Shown one piece after another: positions 19,271-61,701 of a stretch of DNA of 64,000 nucleotides. The translations under genes and the position numbers were made by a program. The first letter of the stretch is position 1. Each line of letters starts with the position of its first letter. The notes below the pieces were generated by a model. That model had not been told where the DNA came from. It did no database searches and worked only from the letters and a program-made list of their open reading frames with translations. The stretch is from NCBI GenBank assembly GCA_019285715.1, contig CP079108.1:1875001-1939000 (forward strand). Direction: 5' to 3'. Origin of the DNA: Sphingosinicellaceae bacterium (GTDB taxonomy: Bacteria > Pseudomonadota > Alphaproteobacteria > Sphingomonadales > Sphingomonadaceae).

Positions 19271-20439
<1,169 letters not shown>

Positions 20440-20443
<4 letters not shown>

Positions 20444-20775
20444 GCGCGGCAATCGGCGGCGCGATCGGCGGCTTCGACAGCAGCGCGGTCCTCGTCCTCC
20501 GCGCCCAGATCCTTGCCAAGAACGCTGCACTCGCGCCGGCGAAGGCGACCCCGCCGCAGGGCTTCGCCGCCGCCATCGACACCGCGCTCCAGTCGGTCAA
20601 CGGCGCACAAACTGCAGCCGGCAGCGCCAGCGCCGCTTATGAACGCGGCGACACGGCCGATATCGCAAGTGTGATGCTCGCCCGCCAGAAGGCCTCGATC
20701 GGCTTCGAGGCGACCCTCCAGGTCCGCAACAAGCTTCTCGCCGCCTATCGCGACGTGATCAGCATGCCGGTATGA
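20440..20775 (+). CDS. fliE: Flagellar hook-basal body protein FliE
   Basis: 111 aa. FliE links the MS ring to the rod. The C-terminal half has the FliE pattern: GDTADIASVMLARQKASIGFEATLQVRNKLLAAYRDVI, quoted here as separate segments GDTADIASVMLARQKASIGF and RNKLLAAYRDVI. The start overlaps the activator stop by four bases and the stop overlaps fliF. Confidence 0.92.
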
Positions 20776-22304
20776 CTGCGCTCGCGCTCAGCGACCTGCG
20801 CAGCGGCGGCGCATTGCGGCTGCGCTTCGAGCGTCTGATCGCGCAGCCCGCGATCAAGCGCACGCTGCCGTGGATCGCGGTCGCGGTCGGGATCGTCGTC
20901 CTGGTCGCGGTCGTGCTGTCGCTCAGGGGCCGGGACTGGACCGCGGTCTATCCGGGCCTCGCCGAAGCCGACAAGTCCGCGGTCGTCGAGGCGCTGCGCG
21001 TCGCCGCCTTCGACGTCTCGATCGACACCGACACCGGTGCCGTCCGCGTGCCCGCCGACCGGGTCGCTGCGGCGCGGATATTGCTCGCCGGGCAGGGCCT
21101 GCCGAAAGCCGCGCCGAGCGGAGCCGCGATGCTCGACGCGATGCCGCTCGGCACCAGCCGCGCCGTGGAGGGCGCCCAGCTGAAGGCGGCGCAGGAGCAC
21201 GACCTCGCTGCCAGTATCGAGCTGATCGACGCCGTCGAGCACGCCCAGGTCCACCTCGCCGCGCCAGAACCGTCGGTGTTCATCCGCGACCATGCAGCGC
21301 CGTCGGCCTCGGTGCTGGTGACGCTGGCGCGGGGCCGCACGCTCAGCGACGCGCAGGTCCGCGCCGTCGTCCACCTCATTGCGTCCGGTGTTGCGGGTCT
21401 CGACCCCGAACGGGTCAGCGTCGTCGACCAGACCGGCACGTTGCTGACCACCGAGGCCGGCGGCGAGCTTGGCGAGTCCGGGCGCATGCTCGACGTCGAG
21501 GCGCGGACCGCCGCCACCGTTCGCCAGCGCATCGTCGCGCTGCTGACGCCGATCCTGGGACGCGACAATTTCTCCGCGCAAGTCACCGCCGACCTCGACT
21601 TCGCCGAGAACGCCGCGACCCGCGAAAGCTACGACAAGGGCGCGCTGACCAGCGAGCAGGGCAGCAACACCACGGAGACCCCGCCACCGCCGGCGCGCGG
21701 CATCCCCGGCGCGCTGTCGAACACCGTGCCCCAGGCGGCGCAGGTCTCGATGACCCCGCCCGCCGCGCTGCCGGCACCGGCAGCCCCCGGCCCGCAGGGC
21801 AGCTCGACCTTCGCGCGCAACTTCGAGGTCGGCAAGGCGGTGTCCGTCACCCGCGCCGTGCCGGGCCAGCTGCGCCGCCTGTCGGTCGCGGTCGTCGTCC
21901 GCAGCGACGCGCTCGGCACCACCAAGGGGCAGGCGGCACAGCTCGCGTCGCTGACCGCGCTGGTCAAGGGGGCGGTCGGCTATGACGGCCGGCGCGGCGA
22001 TGTCGTCACCGTCGCCGGGCGGCCGTTCGTCGATGTGGACGCGACCGGCGAGACCGCGTGGTGGCGGCCGGTCGCGAGCCAGGCAGCACAGGGAATGCTC
22101 ATCCTCGCCGGCTTCGCGATGCTGGTCTTCGGCATTGGACGGCCGTGGCTGCGCTCCCGCATCGCCCCGGCAGTCGCGCCGGAAATCGTTGAGGACGTGC
22201 CCCAGTTGCTCGATTATTCCGGCAAGCTGGCCGAGGCCCGGGCGCTCGTCGGCAGCGACTCTGCGCGCGCCGCCGCGGTCGTCCGCGGGATGATCCGCGC
22301 ATGA
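20772..22304 (+). CDS. fliF: Flagellar MS-ring protein FliF
   Basis: 510 aa. Two membrane spans bracket a periplasmic YscJ/FliF ring-forming domain: PWIAVAVGIVVLVAVVLSL (about 33-51) and GMLILAGFAMLVFGIG near residue 435. Family segments seen are YPGLAEADKSAVVEAL, AARILLAGQGLPK and VSVVDQTGTLL. The Pro/Ala-rich linker at about 290-330 is typical. The cytoplasmic tail after the second span binds FliG and is short. Start overlaps fliE by four bases. Confidence 0.95.
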   Translation: MTALALSDLRSGGALRLRFERLIAQPAIKRTLPWIAVAVGIVVLVAVVLSLRGRDWTAVYPGLAEADKSAVVEALRVAAFDVSIDTDTGAVRVPADRVAAARILLAGQGLPKAAPSGAAMLDAMPLGTSRAVEGAQLKAAQEHDLAASIELIDAVEHAQVHLAAPEPSVFIRDHAAPSASVLVTLARGRTLSDAQVRAVVHLIASGVAGLDPERVSVVDQTGTLLTTEAGGELGESGRMLDVEARTAATVRQRIVALLTPILGRDNFSAQVTADLDFAENAATRESYDKGALTSEQGSNTTETPPPPARGIPGALSNTVPQAAQVSMTPPAALPAPAAPGPQGSSTFARNFEVGKAVSVTRAVPGQLRRLSVAVVVRSDALGTTKGQAAQLASLTALVKGAVGYDGRRGDVVTVAGRPFVDVDATGETAWWRPVASQAAQGMLILAGFAMLVFGIGRPWLRSRIAPAVAPEIVEDVPQLLDYSGKLAEARALVGSDSARAAAVVRGMIRA

Positions 22305-23293
22305 TCCAGATGCCGCTGTCGGGCGCCCAGAAATGCGCGGTGCTGCTGCTCCTCCTCGACGAGGGCGCAGCGGCGGCGCTGCTCCGCGGCCTCGAGCCGC
22401 ACGAGGTCCGGGCCGTCGGCGACGCCATGGTCTCGGTCGCCGAGATCGACCCGCGCGCTATCGACGCCGTGCTCGATGACTTCCTCGCCGCGCATTCGGA
22501 AGTCGCCGCGCTCGGCCGCGACGGCGCGCAGCTTCGCGACGTGATGACCCAGGCGTTCGGCGCACCGCGCGCCGCGACCGTGCTCGATCGCCTCGGGCCG
22601 TCGGTCACCGCGCCGCCGTTCGCCGGGCTGGCGTGGGCCGAACCCGCGCAGATCGCCGCGCTGATCGCCGCCGACCACCCCCAGGTCGGCGCCGTCATCC
22701 TCGCGCATTTGCCCGCCGAGATCGCGTCGGTGGTCGTCGCCGCGCTTCCCCCCGAGGTGCAGGCCAGCGTCCTCGTCCGCCTCGCCCGCCTCGGCCCGGT
22801 GTCGACCGCGACGATCGCCCGCCTCGAAGCCGACGTCGAGCAGCAGCTTCGCGAACTCGTCGCCGCACAGCCACCGGAGGGACGCGGCGGTACCGCAGCC
22901 GCCGCCAAGCTCGTCGGTCAGGTCACCGATCCGACCAAGTTGCTCGAGGTCCTGCGCGGCGTCGATGCCGAACTCGGCGACGCCATCGCCGAGCAGTTGT
23001 TCGTCTTCGCCGACCTGATCCGCATCGACTCTCGCGGCCTCCAGGCGATCGTCCGCGAGGCCGATCCCGAAATCCTCGTCGTCGCGCTCGAAGGTGCCGA
23101 CGCAGCGCTCCGTGCCCACATTTTCGCCGCCATGTCGCAGCGCGCCGCCGCCCAGATCGAGGACGAACTGGCCTCGCTCGCCCCCCTCAAGCGCGAGGAA
23201 GTCACCGCCGCGCAGGCGAAGATCGCCGCCGGAGTCCGCCGCCTCGCCGAGAACGGCGCCCTGATGCTGCCGGGGGGTGCCGGGTATGTCTGA
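22301..23293 (+). CDS. fliG: Flagellar motor switch protein FliG
   Basis: 330 aa. FliG on the MS ring transmits torque from the stator and sets rotation direction. Seen: N-terminal SGAQKCAVLLLLLDEGAAAAL, the middle segment ADHPQVGAVILAHLPAE (DHPQ in place of EHPQ), and the C-terminal LFVFADLIRIDSRGLQAIVRE with charged torque-helix residues. The N-terminus overlaps fliF by four bases and the stop overlaps the fliH start by eight. Confidence 0.95.
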   Translation: MIQMPLSGAQKCAVLLLLLDEGAAAALLRGLEPHEVRAVGDAMVSVAEIDPRAIDAVLDDFLAAHSEVAALGRDGAQLRDVMTQAFGAPRAATVLDRLGPSVTAPPFAGLAWAEPAQIAALIAADHPQVGAVILAHLPAEIASVVVAALPPEVQASVLVRLARLGPVSTATIARLEADVEQQLRELVAAQPPEGRGGTAAAAKLVGQVTDPTKLLEVLRGVDAELGDAIAEQLFVFADLIRIDSRGLQAIVREADPEILVVALEGADAALRAHIFAAMSQRAAAQIEDELASLAPLKREEVTAAQAKIAAGVRRLAENGALMLPGGAGYV

Positions 23294-23852
23294 CGCGATG
23301 CTCGCGCCGCTATCGACACTGTGGAGCGCGATGTCGCCCGCGCGACCCGCCGTGACACCGCCGGTGGATGTCGGCGCGATCGCCGCTGCCGCCGAGGCGC
23401 AGGGCTTCGCGCGCGGCCGGGACGAGGTGGACGCCGCACTCGCGCCGGCATTCACGACTCTGGCCGCAGCCGTGGCCGCTCTCGACGCCGCGCTGGTCAT
23501 CGACCCGGCGACGCTGCAGCCGTTGTTCGTCGACCTCGTCACGCGCATCGCGTCGGCGGTCGTTGGGGGCGAGCTTCGTCAGTCGGGCGATGCGGTCGAG
23601 CGGCTGGTCGCCGAGGCTCTCGGAGCGGTCGAGGGTGGTAGCGAGGCGACGCTGCATCTCAGCGCCGATGATGCCTCATTCTTCCGTCATCCCCGCCTTC
23701 GCGGGGATGACGGGGAAGATAGTGGCAGTGACCTCCCCCGCATCGTCATCGACCCCGACCTCGCCCCCGGCGAAATCCGCGTCGAGACCGCCACCCACGT
23801 CTTCGCCGCGTCGCTCGACGCTCGCCTCGCCGCGATCGTCGGTGCCCTGTGA
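23286..23852 (+). CDS. fliH: Flagellar export apparatus protein FliH
   Basis: 188 aa from ATG 23286 (a GTG three codons earlier is possible). FliH tethers and restrains the FliI ATPase. The order and the C-terminal half (ADDASFF, then LPRIVIDPDLAPGEIRVET) fit; the N-terminal helical region is Ala-rich. Between these halves sits FRHPRLRGDDGEDSGSD, which is translated from a palindromic repeat at 23681-23718, apparently an in-frame insertion. The GTG start of fliI overlaps its stop. Confidence 0.8.
   Translation: MSDAMLAPLSTLWSAMSPARPAVTPPVDVGAIAAAAEAQGFARGRDEVDAALAPAFTTLAAAVAALDAALVIDPATLQPLFVDLVTRIASAVVGGELRQSGDAVERLVAEALGAVEGGSEATLHLSADDASFFRHPRLRGDDGEDSGSDLPRIVIDPDLAPGEIRVETATHVFAASLDARLAAIVGAL
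23681..23718. repeat. Short palindromic repeat inside fliH
   Basis: Core arms GTCATCCCCGC (23686-23696) and GCGGGGATGAC (23701-23711) with four bases between, flanked by CTTCC and GGAAG. It resembles the arms of the type A intergenic palindromes and is read through in frame as RHPRLRGDDG. Confidence 0.9.
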
Positions 23853-25168
23853 CCGCAACCGCAGCCCTCGCCGAGCTCGCCCGCGACGCCGTTCCCGGCC
23901 CGCCGCCCGGCCCGCGCATCGGCGGCCGCGTCCTTGCCTACGACGGGCTGACCATCGACTGCACCGGCCTCGCCAGCCGCGTCGGCGCGATCTGCAGCGT
24001 CGGCAGCCAGCACATTCCCGCCGAGGTCATCGGCTTCCGCGACGGCCGGACCCTGCTGATGGGCCTCGCCCAGCCCGGCGCGCTACTCCCCGGAGCGGCG
24101 GTCCTGCCGCTCGCCGACGCCGCGCGCGTTTCGGTCGGCGAGGCGCTGCTCGGGCGCATCCTCGATGGGGGCGGGCGACCACTCGACGGCGGCCCTGTCC
24201 CGCGCACCGAGACGCGGGTGCCCCTCGATCCGCCCGCTATCAATCCGCTGCGCCGCTCTGCGGTCCGTGAGGTCCTCGACTGCGGCGTCCGCACGATCAA
24301 CGCGCTGCTCACCCTCGGGCGCGGGCAACGGGTGGGCATCATGGCGGGCAGCGGCGTCGGCAAGTCGGTGCTGCTCGGCCAGATCGCGCGCTACTCCGCG
24401 GCCCAGGTCGTGGTCGTCGCGCTGATCGGCGAGCGCGGCCGCGAGATCGGCGATTTCGTCGCCAGCCAGCTCGACGCGAAGTCCCGCGCCCGCACGCTCG
24501 TCATCGCCGTCGCTGCCGACGACGCGCCGCTGCTCCGCGTCCGCGGCGTCATGCGCGCGCATGCCGTGGCCGAGCACTTCCGCGCGCAAGGCCGCCACGT
24601 CCTGCTCATCGTCGACAGCCTGACCCGCGTTGCGCACGCCCAGCGCGAGATCGGCGCGGCATTGGGCGAAGGCCTCGGCGCCCGCGGCTATCCGCCGTCC
24701 GCGATCGGCCTGCTGCCGCGCCTCGTCGAGCGCGCCGGCAACGACGCCGAGACCGGCGGCTCGGTGACCGCGATCTACACCGTGCTGGCGGACGGCGACG
24801 ACATGAACGACCCCGTCGTCGATGCGGCGCGCGGCGTCCTCGACGGCCACATCGTGCTGTCGCGCGCTACCGCCCAGCTCGGGATCTACCCGGCGATCGA
24901 CATCGCCGCGTCGGTCAGCCGCTCGATGCACGACCTCGTCGAGCCCAGCCACGCCGCCGCCGCCGCCAAGTTCCGCCGCGCCCAGGCGCTGATCGACGCC
25001 AACCGCGACCTCGTCCTGATGGGCGCCTACGCCCCCGGTCACGACGCCGCGCTCGACGCAGCACTGTCCGCCCGCGAGGCGATGGAGGCGTTCCGCACCC
25101 AGCCCCGTAGCGAGCGCGCCGGCTTCGCCGCCTCGGTGGCCGCCCTCCACGCCGCGGTGCCGGGATGA
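23849..25168 (+). CDS. fliI: Flagellum-specific ATPase FliI
   Basis: 439 aa from a GTG overlapping fliH. Related to the F1 beta subunit; it energises the flagellar type III export. Seen: Walker A AGSGVGKS at about 166-173, LIGERGREIGDFV, Walker B region VLLIVDSLTRVAHAQREIG, and GSVTAIYTVLADGDDMNDPV. The C-terminal VEPSHAAAAAKFRRAQALIDAN region is as in relatives. Confidence 0.95.
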   Translation: MTATAALAELARDAVPGPPPGPRIGGRVLAYDGLTIDCTGLASRVGAICSVGSQHIPAEVIGFRDGRTLLMGLAQPGALLPGAAVLPLADAARVSVGEALLGRILDGGGRPLDGGPVPRTETRVPLDPPAINPLRRSAVREVLDCGVRTINALLTLGRGQRVGIMAGSGVGKSVLLGQIARYSAAQVVVVALIGERGREIGDFVASQLDAKSRARTLVIAVAADDAPLLRVRGVMRAHAVAEHFRAQGRHVLLIVDSLTRVAHAQREIGAALGEGLGARGYPPSAIGLLPRLVERAGNDAETGGSVTAIYTVLADGDDMNDPVVDAARGVLDGHIVLSRATAQLGIYPAIDIAASVSRSMHDLVEPSHAAAAAKFRRAQALIDANRDLVLMGAYAPGHDAALDAALSAREAMEAFRTQPRSERAGFAASVAALHAAVPG

Positions 25169-25488
25169 ACCGGCTCGCGCGCCTCCGCACGATCCGCACG
25201 GTCGAGCTCAATCGCGGCCTGCGCAGCCTCGCCGACGCCCAGCGCCGCGTCGGGCAACTGGCCGACATGCAGTTCCGGATCGGGCGCCTCGGTGCCGAAT
25301 TGCCGGCCGGCGACACCGTCGGCGCGCGCAAGGCCGCTTCCGCAGGCCTCGTCCGCCTCGACGAGGCCGCTGGGCAGGTCGCGACCGCGCTCGACGGGGT
25401 CCGCGGCCTGCGCGACGGCGCGATGCTGGCCGCGGCGCGCCTCCGCGTTCGGGTCGATGTCGTCGACCAAGCGATGGCCCGCCGATGA
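25165..25488 (+). CDS. fliJ: Flagellar export chaperone-like FliJ
   Basis: 107 aa, all helical with heptad-like Leu/Arg/Ala spacing (LARLRTIRTVELNRGLRSLA, LRVRVDVVDQAMARR), so a coiled coil. FliJ is poorly conserved, so assignment rests on size, coiled-coil character and place between fliI and fliK with four-base overlaps at each side. Confidence 0.7.
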   Translation: MNRLARLRTIRTVELNRGLRSLADAQRRVGQLADMQFRIGRLGAELPAGDTVGARKAASAGLVRLDEAAGQVATALDGVRGLRDGAMLAAARLRVRVDVVDQAMARR

Positions 25489-26876
25489 ACATCGCAGCCA
25501 GCCTGCCTGCGCTGTCGACGGACGTGGCGATTCCTGGCGTCGCGCCGACCGCGACAGCCGAGTTTCCCGTGCTGTTCGCGGCACTGGTATCGGCTCCGGT
25601 GCCAATCTCCACCTCCGTGCCGCTACCGATTCCCACGCCCCCCACCGCGATTTCGCTGCCGGTGAACATTGTGCCTGCGGAACTGGACGCCGGCGCCAAG
25701 CCGCAACCCGGGCATGATGATCCGGACGCGGACGCGGACGTCGATCCGGACGTCCTGCCGACCCCTGTTGCCGATCTTCTGCTGCTGGCGGTCCCGGCGA
25801 TTGCCGTGCTGCTGATCGGCTCGCCTGCGACATCGATCGAGCCGAAGCCTTCGGCCATCGCGATCCCGGTTGATGTGCCGTCGGTTTCGCCGTTCGTGCG
25901 AACTGCTGCGTCGCCACCGCCAGCGTCCGGCGAGACAGCGACGTTGCAAACCGTGTTCGCGCGGCCCAGGTCGCGCCTTCCGGTCCGAGCGGCTGAAGCC
26001 ATCGTGGCCGGCGCGCTCGAGTTGGCTCGGCCTACCGCAAAGCTTGAGCCAAGGTTGCTCGCCACGCCTGCTCCTGCCGAGCCGCCAGCGCAGCCGGTCA
26101 TCGGCGGCCCTGCCGGCGTTCCAGTCGCTGCGCCGGATCTCGTACCCCAACCAGTCACGGTCCAGCAGACGACGACAGAGCTCTCGCCGGTAGCGCCAGC
26201 GGTCACCGCACCGAGTGGTCTGCCGGTTGCCACTCCGGCTCCAGCCGCCACGGCAATTGCTGTAACTGCCGGACCTGTCGCCGCATCGCCCGCGACCGTC
26301 TCCGTCACCCCGGTTCCTACATCCGAAACACGAGCCACGACGTCCCAAATGTCGCGCCCGCTCCGCAGCCGCGACCAGCCCACCGACCTCGCCCTGCCGC
26401 AGTCGACGCCTGCCTTCGCGACATCCGAGGCTCCCCACGATGTCGCCCCATCGCTCGCGACCACCGCCCCTCGCGCGACCGGCCACGACCCAGCCCCGTT
26501 TCCCATCACCGCCCACATCGTCGACACGGGCCCAGGCAGCTTCGACCTCGCCACCGACCGGCTTGGCGCAGTCCGCGTCGCGATCGAGGCGCGCGACACG
26601 CGCGTCGGCGTCCAGTTCACCGTCGATACTTCCGCCGCCGCGAGCCTCCTCGGAGCGCAGCCCTCTCGCCTTGCCGATGCCGTCGCAACCAGCGGCAATA
26701 GCTTTGACGGGGTCTCGGTCGACGTGCGCAGCGGAGGCGGAAACGCCAACGCCAATGCCAGCGAGGGCGGGGGTGGGGGTGGCCGCCCACCCGCCGAGCG
26801 CCGCGATCCCGCACGCACCGCCGCGCTCGAACCCCGCCCGCTCCCCCGCGCCCTCCGCGCCGACCGCTACGCCTGA
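25485..26876 (+). CDS. fliK: Flagellar hook-length control protein FliK
   Basis: 463 aa. A long Pro/Ala/Thr-rich disordered N-terminal ruler (about 1-340) precedes a C-terminal domain of Flg_hook type (GSFDLATDRLGAVRVAIEAR, VGVQFTVDTSAAASLLGA, LADAVATSGNSFDGVSVDVR). FliK measures hook length and switches export specificity through FlhB. Low-complexity N-terminus is expected. ATGA overlap with fliJ. Confidence 0.82.
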   Translation: MNIAASLPALSTDVAIPGVAPTATAEFPVLFAALVSAPVPISTSVPLPIPTPPTAISLPVNIVPAELDAGAKPQPGHDDPDADADVDPDVLPTPVADLLLLAVPAIAVLLIGSPATSIEPKPSAIAIPVDVPSVSPFVRTAASPPPASGETATLQTVFARPRSRLPVRAAEAIVAGALELARPTAKLEPRLLATPAPAEPPAQPVIGGPAGVPVAAPDLVPQPVTVQQTTTELSPVAPAVTAPSGLPVATPAPAATAIAVTAGPVAASPATVSVTPVPTSETRATTSQMSRPLRSRDQPTDLALPQSTPAFATSEAPHDVAPSLATTAPRATGHDPAPFPITAHIVDTGPGSFDLATDRLGAVRVAIEARDTRVGVQFTVDTSAAASLLGAQPSRLADAVATSGNSFDGVSVDVRSGGGNANANASEGGGGGGRPPAERRDPARTAALEPRPLPRALRADRYA

Positions 26877-26884
26877 GGTAAGCC

Positions 26885-27376
26885 ATGGCCGACCCTGACC
26901 CCAAGGCGAAGAAGGCCGGCAAGGGCGGTGCCGCGCTCAAGGTCCTGCTGATCGTCGGCGCGTTTGGCGGCGGGGCCGCGGCGGGTGGCCTCGGCGCGGT
27001 GATGGCGTTCGACGCGATGCCCGGCAAACTTGGGCTCGGCGCCCCGTCGCACGAGACGTCGAAGCTCGAATATGTCGAACTCGACAACGCCTTCACCTCG
27101 AACCTCGTCGACACCGGGCGGTTCCTGCAGCTGCGGATCGCGGTCTCGACCACCGGCGGCCCGAGCACGGTCGCGGCGCTCCAGCAGCACAAGCTGGCGA
27201 TCGTCTCCGCCGTTCTCGGGGTCCTCGGCGACCTGTCGGAGGCCGACGTCGCGGGCGGACCGGCCAAGGCCAAGCTGCGCCTCAAGCTCCGCGAAACCGT
27301 CGACAGCGTGCTCCGCCAGAAGGCGAATGTCGCCGGTATCGACGAGGTCTTCCTGACCAGCCTGGTCGTCCAGTGA
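26885..27376 (+). CDS. fliL: Flagellar basal-body-associated protein FliL
   Basis: 163 aa. Short basic N-terminus (DPKAKKAGKG), one membrane span (LKVLLIVGAFGGGAAAGGL) and a periplasmic domain with VELDNAFTSNLVDTGRFLQL and the C-terminal VAGIDEVFLTSLVVQ, all FliL-like. FliL supports stator function. GAGG stands seven bases upstream of the start. Confidence 0.92.
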   Translation: MADPDPKAKKAGKGGAALKVLLIVGAFGGGAAAGGLGAVMAFDAMPGKLGLGAPSHETSKLEYVELDNAFTSNLVDTGRFLQLRIAVSTTGGPSTVAALQQHKLAIVSAVLGVLGDLSEADVAGGPAKAKLRLKLRETVDSVLRQKANVAGIDEVFLTSLVVQ

Positions 27377-28462: not shown

Positions 28463-28854
28463 CCGACTACGTGCTCCGCCTAGCGCTGGTGCTGCCGCTG
28501 CTGTTGCTCGGCCTGGGCGGAGTGCTGTTCGCGGCGAAGCGCGGGCTGATCCGGCTGCCGGGCGTGGCGACGGGGGAGGCTCCGCTGAAGCTGGTGCAGG
28601 TCGTCAATCTCGGGCCGGGGGCGAAGCTTGCGGTCGCGGAGTTCGCGGGCGAGCGGCTGTTGATCGGGGTCGGGAAGGACGGCGTGCGGTTGCTGGTCGG
28701 AAGGCTCGGCGAGGGCCAAGCGCCCACCCCTAGCCCCTGCCCTGAAGGGGAGGGGGACCCCCTTGTTCTTTCTGCTCCCCTCCCTTTCAAGGGAGGGGTC
28801 GGGGCTGGGTTCTTGCTGCAAGCGAACTTCGCGAGCCCGGTCACCCCCGCATGA
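28459..28854 (+). CDS. fliO: Flagellar export protein FliO with a repeat-derived C-terminus
   Basis: 131 aa from a GTG overlapping fliN. N-terminal membrane span (VLRLALVLPLLLLGLGGVLF), then a small domain (LKLVQVVNLGPGAKLAVAEF, AGERLLIGVGKDGVRLLVGR) as in FliO. From about residue 88 the sequence (APTPSPCPEGEGDPLVLSAP) is translated from a large inverted repeat, so the C-terminal tail is not native. FliO aids FliP assembly and its C-terminus is variable, so the protein may still work. ATGA overlap with fliP. Confidence 0.8.
   Translation: MTDYVLRLALVLPLLLLGLGGVLFAAKRGLIRLPGVATGEAPLKLVQVVNLGPGAKLAVAEFAGERLLIGVGKDGVRLLVGRLGEGQAPTPSPCPEGEGDPLVLSAPLPFKGGVGAGFLLQANFASPVTPA
28722..28810. repeat. 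Inverted repeat inside the 3' part of fliO
   Basis: Imperfect arms CCCACCCCTAGCCCCTGCCC to about 28757 and, inverted, about 28775-28810 (CCCCTCCC.TTCAAGGGAGGGG then TCGGGGCTGGG). It is a different family from the GTCATCCC palindromes and is read in the fliO frame. Confidence 0.8.
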
Positions 28855-29525
28855 ACCCCGACGCCCCCCTGACCGCGCTGGCCGCCGCCCCGCTCGCGCT
28901 CCCCCTCCAGATCCTCGTCCTGATGACGGTGCTGACGCTGCTGCCGTCGCTCCTCCTGATGATGACCGGCTTCACCCGCATCCTGATCGTGCTGGCGATC
29001 GTGCGGCAGGCGATCGGGCTCGGGCAGGCCCCGCCGAATCAGCTGCTCGTCGGCCTCGCGCTGTTCCTGACCCTGTTCGTGATGCGCCCGACGGTGACCG
29101 CGATCGAGACCCAGGCCTATCGCCCCTATGCCGCCGGCACGCTCCCCGCCGAGGCCGCGGTCGGGCGCGCGGGCGCGTTGCTCCACGCCTTCATGCGCGC
29201 CCAGACCCGCGAGAAGGACGTCCGCCTGTTCGCCAACCTCGCCCACGCCGGGCCGTTCGCCAGGCCCGCCGACATTCCGATGACCATCCTCGTGCCCGCC
29301 TTCGCGACCAGCGAGCTCAAGACCGCGTTCGAGATCGGGTTCCTCGTCTATCTGCCGTTCCTGGTCATCGACCTCGTCGTCGCCAGCATCCTGATGGCGC
29401 TCGGCATGATGATGGTGTCGCCGACGTTGATCTCGCTGCCGTTCAAGCTGTTGCTGTTCGTCCTTGTCGACGGCTGGGGGCTGCTGATGGGGTCGCTTGC
29501 CGCCAGCTTCGTGGGGGCCGGATGA
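28851..29525 (+). CDS. fliP: Flagellar export gate protein FliP
   Basis: 224 aa, somewhat short because no long signal peptide is present. Seen: LLPSLLLMMTGFTRILIVLA, NQLLVGLALFLTLFVM, VPAFATSELKTAFEIGFLVY and MMVSPTLISLPFKLLLFVLV. It forms the core export channel with FliQ and FliR. ATGA overlap with fliO; the stop overlaps fliQ. Confidence 0.96.
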   Translation: MNPDAPLTALAAAPLALPLQILVLMTVLTLLPSLLLMMTGFTRILIVLAIVRQAIGLGQAPPNQLLVGLALFLTLFVMRPTVTAIETQAYRPYAAGTLPAEAAVGRAGALLHAFMRAQTREKDVRLFANLAHAGPFARPADIPMTILVPAFATSELKTAFEIGFLVYLPFLVIDLVVASILMALGMMMVSPTLISLPFKLLLFVLVDGWGLLMGSLAASFVGAG

Positions 29526-29794
29526 CCGACGCCGACCTCGTCGCCGACGCCGCGATCTCGGCGCTCAAGACGGTGCTGATGATCGGCGCGCCCGTCGTGC
29601 TGCCGGTACTGGCGTCGGCGCTGCTCGTCGGGCTGGTCCAGGCCGCGACCTCGATCAGCGAGGCGACGCTCAGCTTCGTGCCCAAATTGGTGGTCGCGGG
29701 CGTCTCGCTGCTGCTGTTCGGCGCGCTGATGCTGCGGCTGCTGACCGACTTCACCCTCGAGCTGTACGACCGCATCCCGGCGCTGCTCCATTGA
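29522..29794 (+). CDS. fliQ: Flagellar export gate protein FliQ
   Basis: 90 aa with two membrane helices. Family segments: AISALKTVLMIGAPVVLPVL and LVQAATSISEATLSFVPKLV. Starts with an ATGA overlapping fliP; its stop overlaps the fliR start. Confidence 0.95.
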   Translation: MTDADLVADAAISALKTVLMIGAPVVLPVLASALLVGLVQAATSISEATLSFVPKLVVAGVSLLLFGALMLRLLTDFTLELYDRIPALLH

Positions 29795-30543
29795 TCGCGA
29801 ACTGGCTCGCGGCGCCCGAGGCCGAGATGCAGCGCCTGCTGTTCGCCAGCCTGCGCACCGGGTCGGCGCTCGCCCTGCTGCCCGGTATCGGTGCGACCTT
29901 GCTGCCGATCCGGGTCCGCGTTGGGCTGTCGCTCGCGGTCGGGCTGCTCGTCGAGCAGGTCGCGACCATCGCCGCTCCCGGCGGCCCGGCGCTGGTCGGC
30001 GCGGTCATCGGCGAGATCGCGATCGGGGCCGCGGTCGGCGTCATGCTGCAGGCGATCTTTGCGTCGGCGCAGGTCGCAGGCGAGATGCTCAGCCAGGCGA
30101 TGGGCCTCGGCTTCGCGACCATTCTCGCGCCCGGTGGCCTGACCAGCCCGGTGCTGACCACGTTCCTGTCGCTGCTGATGTGGCTCGCTTTCGTCGGCAA
30201 CGACGGCCACGCGCGCCTGTTCGCGCTGATCGTCGAGAGCTACCGGACGCTGCCCCCGGGCACGATGGCCGACCCGCTCGAGGTCGTGCGTTTCGGCGGC
30301 GTCGCGCTGTCGACCGGGCTGATGCTGGCGCTGCCGGTCGCGGCGGTGCTGGTCATCGTCAACCTGTGGCTGGCGGTGCTGGCCCGGAGCGCGCCGCAGC
30401 TCAACCTGTTCTCGATCGGGTTTGCGACGCTGATGGCGGCGGGGCTGGCGGCGCTGCCGCTGGCGTTCCCGGCGCTGCTGGCGGGGATGGGGCAGGGGGT
30501 CCTCGGGGGTGAGGATGCGATCGCGGCGCTGCTGGGCGGGTGA
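29791..30543 (+). CDS. fliR: Flagellar export gate protein FliR
   Basis: 250 aa from a TTG that overlaps the fliQ stop (TTGA). Multi-spanning, with GAAVGVMLQAIFASAQVAGE-like middle and LALPVAAVLVIVNLWLAVLA near the C-terminus. It completes the FliPQR gate. No better ATG lies in frame near the start. Confidence 0.93.
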   Translation: MIANWLAAPEAEMQRLLFASLRTGSALALLPGIGATLLPIRVRVGLSLAVGLLVEQVATIAAPGGPALVGAVIGEIAIGAAVGVMLQAIFASAQVAGEMLSQAMGLGFATILAPGGLTSPVLTTFLSLLMWLAFVGNDGHARLFALIVESYRTLPPGTMADPLEVVRFGGVALSTGLMLALPVAAVLVIVNLWLAVLARSAPQLNLFSIGFATLMAAGLAALPLAFPALLAGMGQGVLGGEDAIAALLGG

Positions 30544-30668: not shown

Positions 30669-31766
30669 ATGTCCACCGAGAAAACCCATGATCCCACCGA
30701 CAAGCGCAAGCGCGAAGCGGCAGTGCGCGGCGAGGTCTGGCAGTCGCGCGAACTCGGTACCGCATTGGTCACCCTAGCCGGTCTCGCATGGCTGTGGCTC
30801 AGCGGCAGCGCGCTGTTCGCTGCCTGCGCGCAGGTCCTGCGCGGCGGCCTGAGGGTCGGACCGGACCGCCAGCTCGACGTCGCCGCGCTGCTCGGGCCGC
30901 TCGAAGCCCCGCTCGTCAGCTTCGCGCTCCTCGTCATTGCTGGAGGCATCGCCGGCCCCCTGCTGCTCGGGCCCCGCTGGTCGGGCGGCGCGCTGACCCC
31001 GAAGCCGGGGCGGCTCAACCCGCTCGCGGGCCTCAAGCGCATGGTCGGGGCGGAGGGCCCGGTAGAGCTCGGCAAGGCGGTGCTCAAGGCGGCGCTGCTC
31101 GGCGGTGCCGGCTGGTGGTCGGTCGGGCACGCGCTCGGCCTCGACGGCTTCCCGGCCTCGCCCGGGGGAGCGGCGGCGGCGACCGGCGCGACCATACTCC
31201 ACCTGATGACTGCGCTCACCGTCACTCTCCTGCTGATCGCCGCGATCGACCTGCCATGGCAGCGCTCGCGCTGGCTGGCGAAGCTTCGCATGACGCTGCA
31301 GGAAGTCCGCGACGAGCAGCGCGAGAGCGACGGCAACCCCGAAACCAAGGCCGCGCAGCGCCGCATGGCGCGGATCGGCGCCAAGCGCGCGCTTCGTCCC
31401 GCAATGGCAGAAGCGACCGTCGTCACCGTCAACCCGAGCGAATTCGCGGTCGCGCTGCGCTACGTGCCGGGCCGCGACAGCGCTCCGGTCATCGTCGCGC
31501 GCGGGCGGGACGTGATCGCCGCCGCGATCCGCGAACTGGCTGCCGAGCGCGGCGTGCCGGTCCTCCGCTACCCCCAGCTGACCCGAGCGATCTTCTTCAC
31601 CGGCAAGATCGGTGAGCCTATCCGCGACGACCTCTACGCCGCGGTTGCGGCGGTGCTGGCGTACGTCTTCAGCATCGATGCGGAGGCCGGGTCCACTGCG
31701 GCCGCGCCCGAGATCGCGGTCCCGCCAGCGATGCGCTTCGACGAATTCGGTCAGCGAGCTTCGTGA
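30669..31766 (+). CDS. flhB: Flagellar export switch protein FlhB
   Basis: 365 aa. Four membrane spans in residues about 30-200, then a cytoplasmic domain. FlhB autocleaves at Asn-Pro to change substrate class. Here the site at residues 255-258 reads NPSE instead of the nearly invariant NPTH (VTVNPSEFAVALRYVP). Asn and Pro remain, so cleavage may still occur. N-terminus STEKTHDPTDKRKREAAVRG is typical. Tail overlaps the minus-strand gene at 31751 by 16 bases. Confidence 0.93.
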   Translation: MSTEKTHDPTDKRKREAAVRGEVWQSRELGTALVTLAGLAWLWLSGSALFAACAQVLRGGLRVGPDRQLDVAALLGPLEAPLVSFALLVIAGGIAGPLLLGPRWSGGALTPKPGRLNPLAGLKRMVGAEGPVELGKAVLKAALLGGAGWWSVGHALGLDGFPASPGGAAAATGATILHLMTALTVTLLLIAAIDLPWQRSRWLAKLRMTLQEVRDEQRESDGNPETKAAQRRMARIGAKRALRPAMAEATVVTVNPSEFAVALRYVPGRDSAPVIVARGRDVIAAAIRELAAERGVPVLRYPQLTRAIFFTGKIGEPIRDDLYAAVAAVLAYVFSIDAEAGSTAAAPEIAVPPAMRFDEFGQRAS

Positions 31767-32251: not shown

Positions 32252-32346
32252 AGCCCCGTTCTCCCCCTGGCTGCCCACTACGCGCGTAAAATGAAAGTTT
32301 GGCTTCATGCGTTAATGCGCGGCTGGACGCCGCCGTTAACCCTGGC

Positions 32347-33720
32347 ATGACGAGCATCGCCAACTCCCTCGGCGTCGGCTCCGGGATCGACACGAAGGCG
32401 TTGATCGACGAGCTGGTCGCGGCCGAGCGCAAGCCGCGCGACGACGCTTTGACCGCGCGCAGCGACAAGGTCACGGCGCGGATCTCGGGCATGGCGCAGG
32501 TCACCTCGGCGCTCGACGCTCTGGTCGCGGCGATGGCGAGCCGGACGCGGAAAGGCGCGCTCGGGCCGCTGCCCGCGACCAGCGATCCGTCGGCTTTGAC
32601 GGCGCGTGCGACCGCCGGCGCGACCCGCCTGCTCGAGCCGACCAGCATCGAGATCAAGTCACTCGCCGGCGGGCAGTCACTGGTCTCGGTCGCGGTCGCG
32701 TCGTCGACCGCGACGGTGGGCGAGGGCACGCTGACGATCACGCTCGGCACAATGACCCCGGACGGGGCGGGTGACTTCGCCTTCGCGGGGGCGGCGGCGG
32801 GCATCGACATCGTCATCGACAGCAAGAACAACACCCTCGCGGGCCTGGCGGCGGCGATCAACAAGTCGGGTACCGGGGTCCGCGCCAGCATCATCGACGA
32901 CGGGCAGGGCGCACGGCTGGTGCTCAAGGGTCCGACCGGCGCGAAGTCGGCGTTCATCGTCACCGCGACCGGCGATGCGGGCCTTGACCGCTTCCTGTAC
33001 AAGCCCGGCACGCCGACGATGGTCTCCGCCGGCACCGCCCACGACGCGAGCCTCGTCGTCGACGGCGTCAGCGTGACGCGGCCGTCGAACACCATCACCG
33101 ACCTCGTCGTCGGAGTCAGCCTCGACCTCGTCAAGGCGGCTCCCGGGACCGTCATCACGCTCGGCGCCAACCGCGACATCACCGGGCTGACCACCGCGGT
33201 CAACGACCTGGTTGATGCGGTCAACGCGCTCCACAGCCTGACTCATGCACTGACCACCGGGGCCACCGAGGCCGGCGCTGCGGCACCGCTGGCGGGCGAC
33301 GCGACGCTGCGCCAGGTCGAACGCCAGCTGCTCCAGTTGACCGCGACCGGCACCGGCGGGCTGGCGAAGCTCGGGGTGACGACGTCGCGCGACGGCTCGC
33401 TGTCGGTCGATTCCGCCAAGCTGTCGGCGGCGCTGGCGAGCGATCCCGACGGCGCGGAGGCGCTGCTGGCGGGCCTCACCGCGACCGGCGGCGCCCTGAC
33501 CAAGGTTCGCAGCGCGCTGGGGACGTCGACCGACACCCGGCTGACCCGCGAGCAGAGCGCGGTCGCCACCGCGCGCGCCAAGCTCGAGACCAGCATGACG
33601 ACGCTGCGTGCCCAGCTGGTCAAGCAATATGCCGCGATGGAGCAAGCCGTCGGGGCCTTCAAGGCGACCCAGAGCTTCCTCGACGAGCAGATCAAGGCCT
33701 GGAACAAATCCGACAGTTAA
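32347..33720 (+). CDS. fliD: Flagellar filament cap protein FliD
   Basis: 457 aa from ATG 32347 (TSIANSLGVGSGIDTKALID is the canonical N-terminus; an upstream frame adds 16 foreign residues). N- and C-terminal coiled coils surround the hook-associated middle (SLAGGQSLVSVAV, NNTLAGLAAAINKSGTGV). The C-terminal MEQAVGAFKATQSFLDEQI is as in FliD. Caps filament growth. Start of a fliD-fliS unit with no obvious sigma-54 or sigma-28 box found by eye. Confidence 0.93.
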   Translation: MTSIANSLGVGSGIDTKALIDELVAAERKPRDDALTARSDKVTARISGMAQVTSALDALVAAMASRTRKGALGPLPATSDPSALTARATAGATRLLEPTSIEIKSLAGGQSLVSVAVASSTATVGEGTLTITLGTMTPDGAGDFAFAGAAAGIDIVIDSKNNTLAGLAAAINKSGTGVRASIIDDGQGARLVLKGPTGAKSAFIVTATGDAGLDRFLYKPGTPTMVSAGTAHDASLVVDGVSVTRPSNTITDLVVGVSLDLVKAAPGTVITLGANRDITGLTTAVNDLVDAVNALHSLTHALTTGATEAGAAAPLAGDATLRQVERQLLQLTATGTGGLAKLGVTTSRDGSLSVDSAKLSAALASDPDGAEALLAGLTATGGALTKVRSALGTSTDTRLTREQSAVATARAKLETSMTTLRAQLVKQYAAMEQAVGAFKATQSFLDEQIKAWNKSDS

Positions 33721-33730
33721 GGAGACACCG

Positions 33731-34114
33731 ATGCCGTCCACCGCGCGCGCCGTCAGCCAGTACCGCGAACTCGACCTTGCCGGGCGGGTCGCCGCCGCCT
33801 CGCCGCAGCAGCTCATCGGTATGCTGTTCGACGGTCTGCGCACCGCCCTCCGCGCCGCCGAGCGCGCCATCGAGCAGGGCCAGGCCGGGCCGCGCATCCG
33901 GTCCGTGACGCGGGCGCTGTCGATCCTCGACGGGCTGGAGACGTCGCTGGATTTCGTCGCGGGCGGCGGTGTCGCGCGGACGCTGGCAGCGCTTTACGGC
34001 CAGCTGCGCGCGTTGATCGTGGCGGGCAATGCGGAGGCGCGGCCGGAGCTGCTCGGGGTCGCGGCGGAGCGGGTGCGGACGCTGGGGGAAGCGTGGCGGG
34101 GGGTGGCCGCTTAG
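33731..34114 (+). CDS. fliS: Flagellin chaperone FliS
   Basis: 127 aa from ATG 33731. All-helical; seen are AVSQYRELDLAGRVAAASPQ, QLIGMLFDGLRTALRAAERA and SILDGLETSLDF, which fit FliS. It binds flagellin to prevent premature assembly. Ten bases after fliD with AAGGAGA as the ribosome binding site. Confidence 0.9.
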   Translation: MPSTARAVSQYRELDLAGRVAAASPQQLIGMLFDGLRTALRAAERAIEQGQAGPRIRSVTRALSILDGLETSLDFVAGGGVARTLAALYGQLRALIVAGNAEARPELLGVAAERVRTLGEAWRGVAA

Positions 34115-34300: not shown

Positions 34301-35305
34301 CTAGCACGCCGGCAACCGGCTGATGTTCAACCGCCGCATCTTCTCGATCAGCGTCGTCCGCCGCAGCCCGAGCCGCCGCGCGGTCTCCGCGACGCCGCCC
34401 GCCGTGCTCAGCAGCGTTCGCTCGATGTACCCCTGCTCGATCGCGTCGAGCACCTGCTTGAGGTCGACGAACGCGTCATCCGGCTCGACCACCCGCGGCA
34501 GCGGCCGGCGCACCGCGACCGGGGCGAGCCCGCGGACGACGCTGTCCGCCAGCTGGAGCGCGGTGGCGCGGTCGACGGTCTCGCCCGGATGGAGCGCCGA
34601 GGCGCGGTCGACGAGGTTGCGCAGTTCGCGGATGTTGCCGCGCCACGGCAGCTCGCGGAGAGCGTCGAGGGCCGGCACGCTGAACTCGACCCGGCGGGCC
34701 GGCACGCCGCGCGCGACGAAATGCTCGATGAGTGGCACGATGTCGTCGCGCCGCTCGGCCAGCGCCGGCATGGCGATCTCGACCACCGCGAGCCGGTAGA
34801 ACAGGTCCTCGCGGAAGTTGCCCGCGGCGACCGCGGCGCCCAGATCGACGTTGGTCGCGGCGACGACGCGGACGTCGACGGGCGTACCGATCATGCCGCC
34901 GACCCGCTCGACGACGCGGGTTTCGAGGACGCGGAGCAATTTGACCTGCATCGCCAGCGGCATGTCGCCGACCTCGTCGAGGAAGAGGGTGCCGGTGTCG
35001 GCGAGTTCGAAACGCCCGCGCCGGGCCTTGACCGCACCGGTGAACGCGCCCGCCTCGTGGCCGAAGATTTCGCTTTCGATGAGCTCGGCGGGGAGGGCGC
35101 CGCAATTGACCGCGACGAACGGCCGGGCGGCGCGGGCCCCACGCTGGTGCAGCAGTTGCGCGACGACCTCCTTGCCGCTGCCCGAGGGCCCGGTGACGAG
35201 CACGGTCGCGCTGCTGCCAGCGACCCGGTCGATCATGTCGCGCACCGCGGCAATCGCGTCGCTGACGCCGATCAGTTCGGCCAGTTCCAAGCCATTGCGC
35301 TGCAT
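34301..35305 (-). CDS. Sigma-54-dependent regulator without receiver, FleQ-like
   Basis: 334 aa from ATG 35305, which has AAAGGG upstream; a GTG at 35377 would add 24 residues. AAA+ domain with Walker A GPSGSGKE at 39-46, GAFTGA at 86-91, Walker B GTLFLDEVGDMP, and a Fis-type HTH (VAETARRLGLRRTTLIEKM) at the end. The sensor domain is only ~30 residues. Position after fliD-fliS suggests a flagellar role. It is convergent with fliS and divergent from the winged-helix gene at 35480. Confidence 0.82.
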   Translation of the reverse strand: MQRNGLELAELIGVSDAIAAVRDMIDRVAGSSATVLVTGPSGSGKEVVAQLLHQRGARAARPFVAVNCGALPAELIESEIFGHEAGAFTGAVKARRGRFELADTGTLFLDEVGDMPLAMQVKLLRVLETRVVERVGGMIGTPVDVRVVAATNVDLGAAVAAGNFREDLFYRLAVVEIAMPALAERRDDIVPLIEHFVARGVPARRVEFSVPALDALRELPWRGNIRELRNLVDRASALHPGETVDRATALQLADSVVRGLAPVAVRRPLPRVVEPDDAFVDLKQVLDAIEQGYIERTLLSTAGGVAETARRLGLRRTTLIEKMRRLNISRLPAC

Positions 35306-35479
35306 CCGAGCCCTTTCGGTCGATGTGCAGCCGTGCCCCTCCGCGCAGCCGTCGATCACCCATACAGAGTTTTCCACAGACTTATTCAGTATGGGTCCGA
35401 AACGGTTTGTTCAGTTGTGCTACCTTGTCTAGTTACCACCGATTGAGCGGTTTTCCCGGTTAAGTTAAAGGAATTGTTA

Positions 35480-46514: not shown

Positions 46515-47468
46515 CTACAGCCCCGTATAGCCCCGGAACCACGCCACGAACCGCGGCAGTCCCTCGTCCAGCGTGACCTTCGGATCATACCCCAGGTTGT
46601 CCCGCGACTTGCCGATCTCGGCATGGGTCGCCAGCACGTCGCCCGGCGGCAGCGGCACCTCCTCGATGATCGCCTGGCGCCCGGTGGCGGCCTCGATGAT
46701 CGACAGGAAGCGCGTCAGCTCCTCCGACCGGTCGTTGCCCAGGTTGTAGATGAAGTGGGGCCTTGTCCCCGCCGGCGGCCGGTCGAGCGCCGCCAGCACG
46801 CCTGCGACGATGTCGTCGACGTAGGTGAAGTCCCGGCTCATCCGCCCGCCGTTGTTGAGCCGTATGGTCGTGCCCCGTAGCACGGCTTCCGTGAACAGCC
46901 ACGGTGCCATGTCGGGCCGTCCCCACGGGCCGTAGACGGTAAAGAACCGCAGGCCGGTCTGCGGGATGTGGAACAGGTGGGCGTACGCATCGCTCATCAG
47001 CTCGTCGGCGCGCTTGGTCGCGGCGTACAGCGACACCGGATGGTCGACCGCGTCACCGACCTCGAACGGCAGCTTGGCATTGCCGCCATAGACCGATGAC
47101 GACGAGGCATAGACGAGGTGCTTGCTGCCGCGCGCCCGCGCCAGCTCGAGCACGTTGAGGTGCCCCGCCAGGTTGCTCCGGACATAGTCGTGCGGCTGCT
47201 CGAGAGAGTGGCGGACGCCGGCCTGTGCGCCGAGGTGGACGATGCGGTCGAAGCTGTCGGGCAGGGCGGTCAGCACGCTCATCTCGGCAAAGTCGCCCTC
47301 GACGAAGCTGAAGTCACCGGTCAGCCGCTCCAGTCGCGCGTGCTTCAGCGCCACCGGGTAGTAGGTGTTGAGGTTGTCGATGCCGACGACGCTCTCGCCG
47401 CGCGCCAGCAGCGCTTCGGCGACCGCCGCCCCGATGAATCCGGCGACCCCGGTAACCAGCACTGCCAT
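46515..47468 (-). CDS. NAD-dependent epimerase, UDP-glucuronate 4-epimerase-like
   Basis: 317 aa. Extended SDR: NAD motif GVAGFIGAAVAEALLARGES, IDNLNTYYPVALKHARLERL (as in UDP-glucuronate epimerases), catalytic YxxxK in SLYAATKRADELM, and RFFTVYGPWGRPDMAPWLFT. UDP-glucuronate 4-epimerase makes UDP-galacturonate for cell-surface polysaccharide; the similarity of the Asn-Tyr-Tyr region supports this reading. Divergent from the phosphotransferase gene. Confidence 0.87.
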   Translation of the reverse strand: MAVLVTGVAGFIGAAVAEALLARGESVVGIDNLNTYYPVALKHARLERLTGDFSFVEGDFAEMSVLTALPDSFDRIVHLGAQAGVRHSLEQPHDYVRSNLAGHLNVLELARARGSKHLVYASSSSVYGGNAKLPFEVGDAVDHPVSLYAATKRADELMSDAYAHLFHIPQTGLRFFTVYGPWGRPDMAPWLFTEAVLRGTTIRLNNGGRMSRDFTYVDDIVAGVLAALDRPPAGTRPHFIYNLGNDRSEELTRFLSIIEAATGRQAIIEEVPLPPGDVLATHAEIGKSRDNLGYDPKVTLDEGLPRFVAWFRGYTGL

Positions 47469-47594
47469 AACGCAACCCCTCGCAATGAGCGCTCAATGCC
47501 GTCCGCGACCGCGGCTGTCGAGGCCCGCCGTGCCACTCCGTCTTGTCAGTGGCGTACAGTTCCGCCACAAGCCGGCAAAACAAGGGATGGCCGC

Positions 47595-48635
47595 TTGGAG
47601 CCCGTCACAGCGTCGATACTAACCGGGGTAGCGGCGCTGGCGATCGCGCTGCCGATCGGTCTCTACGCCCGCCCGCTCGGCGAGCGCTTTGCGCTCCTCG
47701 ATTTCCCGGACACCGATGGCGGCCGCAAGCGCCATGCCACGATCACCCCGTTGGTCGGCGGTATCGCGCTGGCGCTCGTCGCGCTGGTCAGTTGCGCGCT
47801 GACCGTAGTTCTCGTGCCCGCCGGGCCGTGGGTGGTCCAGCACCTGATCTGGCTCGGCAGCGTCACTGGGGCGATGTACATAGTCGGCTTCTTCGACGAC
47901 CGCTTCCACCTTAGTCCGGTGCTCCGCCTCGGGCTCGCGGTCGGCGCGCTGTTGCTGGCGCTGGTCCATGCGCCCGACTACTCGCTCGGAATCCTGCGCT
48001 TCGCCGGGCAGGACAGCGTGCTGCCGCTCGGTTCGTCTGGCGATGCGTTCGCGCTGCTGTGCCTGGTCGGGCTGCTCAACGCGGTCAACATGGCGGACGG
48101 CAAGAACGGCATCATCCTGTGCCTTGGGCTGGTCTGGACACTCGTGCTTGCCTGCCACCTGCCCGCATCGTTTGCGCCGGTGCTGAGCGGCATCGGCGTG
48201 GCACTCGCGACGATGCTGGTGTTCAACCTCAACGGCCGCTTGTTCATGGGCGACGGCGGCAGCTATGCGCTGTCGGCGCTGTTCGGCCTGCTGGCGATCT
48301 ACGCCTACAACAATGACTTCGAGGCGATGCGCGCCGATGATGTCGCGGTGATGTTTGCGATTCCGGTGTTCGACACGGTGCGCCTGATGACGGTACGCGC
48401 GCTGTCCGGCCGCTCGCCGTTCCTCGGCGACCGCAATCACCTCCACCACCACCTCCACCAGCGTTTCGGATGGCCGAGCGGCCTCGTCGTCTATGTCGCC
48501 CTGGTCGCGCTGCCCAACGCGGCAGCGCTGCTGTTGCCGGGCACCGGGCTGGTCTGGCTGGGTGTCAGCCTGGCACTTTATGCCGCGGCGTTATGGGCGA
48601 CGCGGTGGCATCGCTTGCCAAGCCCCGCCGGCTGA
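47595..48635 (+). CDS. WecA/MraY-family undecaprenyl-phosphate sugar-phosphotransferase
   Basis: 346 aa from a TTG with AAGGG eight bases upstream. About ten spans. Catalytic motifs: YIVGFFDDRF, NAVNMADGKNGI, FMGDGGSYALSALFG and DRNHLHHHLHQRFG with the HHxH-type block. Such enzymes start O-antigen, ECA or exopolysaccharide assembly on undecaprenyl phosphate. It may initiate the glycan of the locus to the right, though 9 kb lies between. Confidence 0.85.
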   Translation: MEPVTASILTGVAALAIALPIGLYARPLGERFALLDFPDTDGGRKRHATITPLVGGIALALVALVSCALTVVLVPAGPWVVQHLIWLGSVTGAMYIVGFFDDRFHLSPVLRLGLAVGALLLALVHAPDYSLGILRFAGQDSVLPLGSSGDAFALLCLVGLLNAVNMADGKNGIILCLGLVWTLVLACHLPASFAPVLSGIGVALATMLVFNLNGRLFMGDGGSYALSALFGLLAIYAYNNDFEAMRADDVAVMFAIPVFDTVRLMTVRALSGRSPFLGDRNHLHHHLHQRFGWPSGLVVYVALVALPNAAALLLPGTGLVWLGVSLALYAAALWATRWHRLPSPAG

Positions 48636-60156: not shown

Positions 60157-60330
60157 TTACCTTCCGAATACACTCGCGAAATATACCAAGATAATTCTCG
60201 ATGATTACCATGTACTGGAGTAATTAGAAGTCCACACCATATCATGAACTAGGATACCTGGAACACGTTGCTGTCCATGGGGGATTATCGTGACATTCCG
60301 AGATTCGGCGCTGCCAGAAGGTTTCACCGC

Positions 60331-61695: not shown

Positions 61696-61701
61696 GCGGC
61701 G

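What the first reader, a model, noticed from the sequence alone, without database searches (positions are those of the whole stretch)
31431..31442. FlhB autocleavage site is NPSE, not NPTH
The NPTH motif is nearly invariant in FlhB/YscU proteins; here residues 255-258 read NPSE while the surrounding sequence is normal. The Thr-to-Ser change is mild, His-to-Glu is not. Slow or absent cleavage would alter the hook-to-filament switch.
Basis: partly seen in the sequence, partly recalled or inferred. Interest (0 to 1): 0.55.

Follow-up and report, generated by a model that had tools for sequence, protein, structure and literature searches.

The report
Flagellar switch protein, altered cut site
A bacterial flagellum-building protein that normally cuts itself carries NPSE instead of the textbook NPTH at its cut site, but relatives vary at the same two letters, the two letters that matter most for the cut are intact, and the protein very probably still works.

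Summary
In detail: window 31431-31442 encodes N255-P256-S257-E258 in an intact flhB, the only PF01312 match in this genome. The premise that NPTH is nearly invariant fails here. In a 397-genome family sample, 50 of 260 assignable FlhB carriers have a non-NPTH FlhB (two also have an NPTH copy). All 50 keep Asn-Pro; 10 have lost His. The one congener held has NPAE; the next relatives read NPTS, NPSH and NPTH. In other alphaproteobacteria 11 of 181 are non-NPTH, all 11 with His. In print, a Shewanella FlhB with NPEH self-cleaves and HrcU T266A and H267A still cleave, less well. EscU T264A and H265A structures hold chains starting at the Pro. Best reading: lineage-specific relaxation of the loop after an intact scissile bond, with cleavage and switching retained, possibly slower. 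Side lead: such genomes often have an eroded FliK switch domain (PF02120 found in 10 of 32 against 76 of 91), but tree-aware tests do not support a link. Cleavage of NPSE itself is untested.

The parts
30669..31766 (+). flhB, 365 aa, intact
   Evidence: PF01312 E 7.5e-87; best NCBIfam model TIGR00328 flhB, 256 bits, below its naming cut-off of 349
31431..31442 (+). self-cleavage motif, N255 P256 S257 E258
   Evidence: AlphaFold2 model puts residues 251-255 in a strand, 256-258 in a loop and 259-264 in the next strand
31431..31436 (+). Asn-Pro pair at the scissile bond, kept in all 50 non-NPTH genomes read
31437..31442 (+). substituted positions 3-4 (Ser, Glu in place of Thr, His)
25485..26876 (+). 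fliK (hook-length ruler and switch); start codon uncertain
   Evidence: PF02120 match at residues 353-419, E 4.2e-7, profile positions 17-83 of 85
26541..26741 (+). FliK switch-domain match; first 16 profile positions not matched
20440..20775 (+). fliE
20772..22304 (+). fliF
22193..23290 (+). fliG (open frame; start uncertain)
23849..25168 (+). fliI
26885..27376 (+). fliL
28851..29525 (+). fliP
29495..29791 (+). fliQ (start uncertain)
   Evidence: PF01313 E 2.8e-20
29794..30543 (+). fliR (start uncertain)
32299..33720 (+). fliD, filament cap (a late export substrate)
33731..34114 (+). fliS, flagellin chaperone

Best explanation
This is an FlhB whose Asn255-Pro256 bond is still expected to cut itself (by cyclisation of the Asn side chain; mechanism recalled, not read here), freeing the C-terminal fragment that FliK later acts on to end hook growth. 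Thr and His are not the main catalytic pair, and in Sphingomonadaceae they have repeatedly been replaced. NPSE is a lineage-specific form of that relaxed loop; cleavage may be somewhat slower and the face presented to FliK is altered. Shown here: the sequence, its conservation pattern, the gene neighbourhood, the predicted fold. Inferred: cleavage, switching, any change in FliK contact.
For: Asn-Pro kept in 50 of 50 non-NPTH genomes, with at least 13 changes at TH and 5 at His on a 122-row tree. Congener NPAE; next relatives NPTS, NPTH, NPSH. NPEH cleaves in Shewanella and stands in the solved FlhB chains 6s3l, 8z5s and 6z0w. HrcU T266A and H267A cleave. EscU T264A and H265A chains start at the Pro, whereas EscU N262A is a whole 137-aa chain. 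Model: strand-loop-strand at block pLDDT 87-89, FlhB/YscU/EscU cytoplasmic domains as top fold matches. NG86 dN/dS about 0.47 to the congener (0.34 in the C-domain) and about 0.16 between two near relatives. FliK tail ends RYA, E. coli FliK ends IFA.
Against: I found no report of an FlhB without His being tested for cleavage, and Ser+Glu together is untested. HrcU T266A and H267A left more uncleaved protein and complemented only partly. Chain ends in the PDB are weak evidence: YscU 2jli, titled as the plain cytoplasmic domain, is listed as one 123-aa chain. flhA, flg, fliC and mot were not found in the 1.26 Mb examined of this 4.43-Mb genome. The protein scores below NCBI's flhB naming cut-off. 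Whole-model quality is middling (mean pLDDT 79.7, pTM 0.50).
Confidence: 0.75

Rival explanations
1. One reading: NPSE blocks or strongly slows cleavage, so the hook-to-filament switch is altered in this organism.
For: His loss is rare: 10 of 260 assignable family genomes, and none of the 11 non-NPTH genomes among 181 other alphaproteobacteria (most of the 181 were assigned by the DNA pattern, not read). HrcU T266A and H267A are less efficient. A non-cleaving HrcU AAAH triple variant still gave canker lesions in X. citri (abstract and passages), so a system can run uncleaved in part.
Against: Asn-Pro is intact. NPEH cleaves. EscU T264A and H265A look cleaved in the PDB. fliD and fliS, which serve after the switch, are kept beside flhB.
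Confidence: 0.15
2. The flagellar system is decaying and FlhB is drifting towards a relic.
For: dN/dS to the congener is moderately high (about 0.47). Some relatives have no FlhB match (1 of 3 genomes in G158's genus, 4 of 6 in G134's). flhA, flg, fliC and mot were not found in 1.26 Mb of 4.43 Mb. FliK's switch domain is weak.
Against: The fli frames examined in the window run without stops. The FlhB C-domain is well conserved with the four near relatives. About 3.16 Mb of the genome was not searched for the missing genes.
Confidence: 0.1
3. TH relaxation follows erosion of the FliK switch domain: once FliK no longer docks on the PTH loop, Thr and His drift.
For: PF02120 found in 10 of 32 FliK from non-NPTH genomes against 76 of 91 from NPTH genomes. 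If NPTH is ancestral and never regained, 15 of 17 inferred TH losses lie in rows with a FliK score under 85, 10 of 17 under 30. HpaC, the FliK counterpart, binds the NPTH motif of HrcU (passages). NPTH genomes with an eroded FliK exist (e.g. G134, G172), as if FliK changed first.
Against: Rows under 85 make up 63 of 122 rows and 63% of the tree length. Tree-aware tests are not significant: in 13 independent pairs FliK state did not differ in about 12, and branch tests gave p 0.16-0.69. NPRH occurs with a canonical FliK (L144). Print holds that the folded part of FliK (Salmonella residues 301-350) is needed to switch.
Confidence: 0.2

Closest known systems
FlhB of Shewanella putrefaciens (NPEH; 6z0w)
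   Same: flagellar FlhB; its cytoplasmic domain is the top fold match of the model; non-Thr at position 3, Asn-Pro kept, self-cleaves
   Different: keeps His at position 4
FlhB of E. coli K-12 (NPTH)
   Same: family (E 2.3e-53 to the window protein) and Asn-Pro site
   Different: NPTH against NPSE; E. coli flhB sits beside flhA, here beside fliR
FlhB of Glacieibacterium frigidum LB1R16 (NPAE)
   Same: orthologue, 61% identical, same gene order, Glu at position 4
   Different: Ala in place of Ser; that genome also has a second FlhB with NPTH
EscU T264A and H265A, HrcU T266A and H267A (laboratory variants)
   Same: change at the same two positions; cleaved or partly cleaved
   Different: single changes to Ala in injectisome proteins; not Ser+Glu together

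Membership tests
FlhB (flagellar switch protein, PF01312) | sequence family over the curated cut-off | tested here: met
   PF01312 292 bits, cut-off 24.4
FlhB (flagellar switch protein, PF01312) | flagellar rather than injectisome type: best model and neighbourhood | tested here: met
   TIGR00328 flhB 256 bits against TIGR01404 SctU 219; fli genes on both sides
FlhB (flagellar switch protein, PF01312) | NCBI equivalog naming score for FlhB (349 bits) | tested here: not met
   256 bits. A naming threshold rather than a biological feature; I keep the assignment on family, fold and neighbourhood and say so
FlhB (flagellar switch protein, PF01312) | catalytic Asn-Pro pair | tested here: met
   N255-P256
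FlhB (flagellar switch protein, PF01312) | full NPTH tetrapeptide | tested here: not met
   NPSE; but 50 of 260 family genomes and 11 of 181 other alphaproteobacteria carry non-NPTH FlhB, and print already gives NP(T/E)H, so it does not define the family
FlhB (flagellar switch protein, PF01312) | fold of the cytoplasmic domain, Asn at the end of a strand and the loop after it | tested here: met
FlhB (flagellar switch protein, PF01312) | self-cleavage and export switching | not testable with these tools
   needs a bench test

The most novel reading that the evidence does not exclude
Sphingomonadaceae have loosened the FlhB-FliK switch interface: His and Thr after the scissile bond have been lost several times while Asn-Pro stays fixed, mostly in lineages whose FliK switch domain is eroded but whose FliK tail (hydrophobic-Ala) is kept. 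This would separate cleavage (Asn-Pro) from docking (Thr-His) by natural variation and suggest that the FliK tail can flip the switch with little of the folded domain.
Probability: 0.2. Interest if true: 0.5.

Novelty: new variant of a known kind. Interest (0 to 1): 0.27.

Why it matters
It corrects the idea that NPTH is a fixed signature: tools that demand NPTH would misjudge nearly one in five FlhB carriers in this family sample. The naturally His-less sites are ready-made test cases for what Thr and His do, separately from Asn and Pro, and for how FliK docks.

Tried and rejected
Base-calling or frame error: rejected; two base changes would be needed for His to Glu and the congener shares Glu.

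A second, standard FlhB in the same genome that would free this one: rejected; one PF01312 match only. The congener G001 does have two.

A tight FlhB-FliK co-change: raw counts favour it, tree-aware tests do not; kept only as a lead. Of the 50 non-NPTH genomes FliK was compared in 32; no FliK was picked for G147, G229, G113, G255 or G105, and the others were not fetched widely enough. Of 130 FliK frames I scanned 123: left out were L064, L068 and L269 (same contigs as L139, L143 and L142), L291 (wrong frame picked) and L078, L082 and L086 (overlooked). L291 counted as eroded and was reset. My own FliK profile leans to Sphingomonas, so the Pfam counts are the better measure. With midpoint rooting, reconstructed 3 TH losses and 10 regains, which I do not believe; forbids regain.

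Completeness of the flagellar set: E. coli queries found no flg, flhA, fliC, che or mot gene in the 1.26 Mb from 1,275,001 to 2,539,000. As a control the same queries found eleven fli/flhB genes in the window but missed fliK, fliM and fliH, so they are not fully sensitive; about 3.16 Mb was not searched.

Surveys: the 210 and 166 pattern-positive genomes were taken as NPTH without reading each one; the reversed-pattern control hit once in 397 genomes, and I saw none in 308. Second copies in pattern-positive genomes were not all read, so non-NPTH counts are minima. In the family draw G295 (no true FlhB) and G097 (part without the motif) were dropped from 262. In the class draw four family members and seven genomes with only fragments or no true match were dropped from 192. 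The dN/dS figures use open frames that, for G064 and G134, reach upstream of the start codon.

Full report
What is there. The ORF at window 30669-31766 + encodes a 365-aa FlhB. The protein matches PF01312 at E 7.5e-87, is the only such match in the 4.43-Mb genome, and lies among fliE, fliF, fliG, fliI, fliK, fliL, fliN, fliP, fliQ, fliR, fliD and fliS. A fliM-like frame scores below Pfam's cut-off and fliH was not detected with the E. coli query.

Is NPTH invariant here? No. In a draw of 397 genomes of the family, 262 had an FlhB match (261 with the Pfam model) and 210 had the NPTH DNA pattern, every one of them among the 262 (the reversed-pattern control hit once). The 52 others are this genome, five whose loci I already had (G001, G064, G097, G158, G369) and 46 searched again, with further loci fetched. 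G295 had no true FlhB and G097 only a part without the motif. The other 50 each have a non-NPTH FlhB; two of them, G001 and G058, also have an NPTH copy. All 50 keep Asn-Pro; position 3 is S, E, Q, M, A, V, L, H, D, R, I or T. Position 4 has lost His in 10: this genome NPSE, G001 NPAE, G158, G153, G243 and G333 NPTS, G037 and G218 NPVQ, G147 NPVR, G229 NPTR. In a scan of named genomes 59 of 62 loci covering the motif were NPTH; the other three are titled Glacieibacterium or Polymorphobacter.

In a draw of 308 alphaproteobacteria, 192 had a match and 166 the pattern. Leaving out four family members and seven genomes with fragments or no true match, 181 remain; 11 are non-NPTH, each with His. 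Six more miss the pattern but read NPTH. One extra copy (G482) lacks two residues after NPT, and one second copy (G452) has no Asn-Pro at the site. The family-class difference has Fisher p 0.0066 for His loss and 6.7e-5 for non-NPTH, not corrected for relatedness.

On a FastTree tree of FliI, FliP and FlhB (motif columns removed; 122 rows), TH changes at least 13 times and His at least 5 times. The window row pairs with the congener (support 100), and these two group with G158, G064 and G134 (99). The five read NPSE, NPAE, NPTS, NPSH and NPTH, so the site is loose across this small clade.

How it most likely works. FlhB cuts itself between Asn and Pro; in a 2026 model the freed C-terminal part holds the apparatus in early mode until FliK drives its removal (abstract, passages and the model section of PMC13344023). 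Published tests bear on positions 3 and 4. Shewanella FlhB with NPEH cleaves and its N269A variant does not (passages of PMC7771051); that paper writes the motif NP(T/E)H. HrcU T266A and H267A are cleaved, with more uncleaved protein left, and complement partly, while N264A is not cleaved (sections 5 and 6 of PMC3040844). EscU P263A is partly cleaved (abstract and passages of PMC3189125). In the PDB, chains of EscU T264A (3bzv) and H265A (3bzx) start at the residue matching Pro256, as expected after cleavage, whereas N262A (3bzp) is one 137-aa chain. That is an inference from chain ends, not from the paper, and YscU 2jli shows that such bookkeeping can mislead. The AlphaFold2 model has strand 251-255, loop 256-258 and strand 259-264 (block pLDDT 87-89; mean 79.7, pTM 0.50), and its best PDB matches are FlhB, YscU and EscU cytoplasmic domains. 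So the cut is expected, perhaps slower. Ser and Glu together, or a natural His-less FlhB, appear in none of the papers I found: searches, open-licence papers only. One search missed the Shewanella paper because of its typography, and the NPTS and NPSE strings that search 107 listed beside FlhB in three papers proved to be a plasmid name or run-together words (the rest of that list was not opened), so absence is weak evidence.

FliK. The window's FliK matches only profile positions 17-83 of PF02120 (E 4.2e-7), and in the five-member clade the first helix of the switch domain is not recognisable. Across the family PF02120 was found at E 0.001 in 4 of 8 FliK from His-less genomes, 6 of 24 from genomes changed at position 3 only, and 28 of 43 and 48 of 48 from NPTH genomes (Fisher p 1.1e-7 for 10 of 32 against 76 of 91, uncorrected). 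Relatedness explains much of this: independent pairs and branch tests show no significant link. If regain is forbidden, 15 of 17 inferred TH losses sit in rows with a FliK score under 85 (10 of 17 under 30), but such rows hold 63% of the tree length. The last two residues of FliK are hydrophobic-Ala in 118 of 122 (window YA; E. coli FA). The 2026 model gives the tail the decisive contact but also calls the folded part (Salmonella 301-350) essential (also PMC6972891, passages), which speaks against a tail-only switch.

Rivals. Blocked cleavage is less likely for the reasons above. Decay cannot be excluded: some relatives lack FlhB, flhA, flg, fliC and mot were not found in 1.26 Mb of the genome, and dN/dS to the congener is about 0.47 (NG86). 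But the fli frames examined are open, and the near relatives G064 and G134 show dN/dS about 0.16.

Verdict. Correct observation, over-read. A lineage-specific relaxation of the loop after an intact scissile bond; ordinary in kind, useful as natural variation.

Noticed in passing
window 25485-26876 and FliK of related loci (L252, L253, L259, L262, L265-L267, L270-L285): The FliK switch domain is eroded or cut short in large parts of the family, while a hydrophobic-Ala tail is mostly kept.
   Followed up: partly
L002: Glacieibacterium frigidum carries a second, standard FlhB (NPTH) besides the NPAE one, so two export systems may coexist there.
   Followed up: no
L239, L240, L242, L243, L248-L251: Short open frames matching only the part of FlhB after the cleavage site, in several alphaproteobacteria.
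   Followed up: no
L247 (G452) and L210 (G482): A second FlhB copy with no Asn-Pro at the site, and a copy that lacks two residues just after NPT.
   Followed up: partly
window 19271-20443 + and 34301-35377 -: Two sigma-54 activator genes flank the fli cluster.
   Followed up: no
window genome C1:1275001-2539000: flhA, flgA-L, fliC, che and mot genes were not found with E. coli queries within this 1.26 Mb around the fli cluster, so the flagellar genes are at least split.
   Followed up: partly
window 47118-48635 and 60268-63267: Glycosyltransferases and an O-antigen ligase-like protein, perhaps part of a polysaccharide cluster.
   Followed up: no
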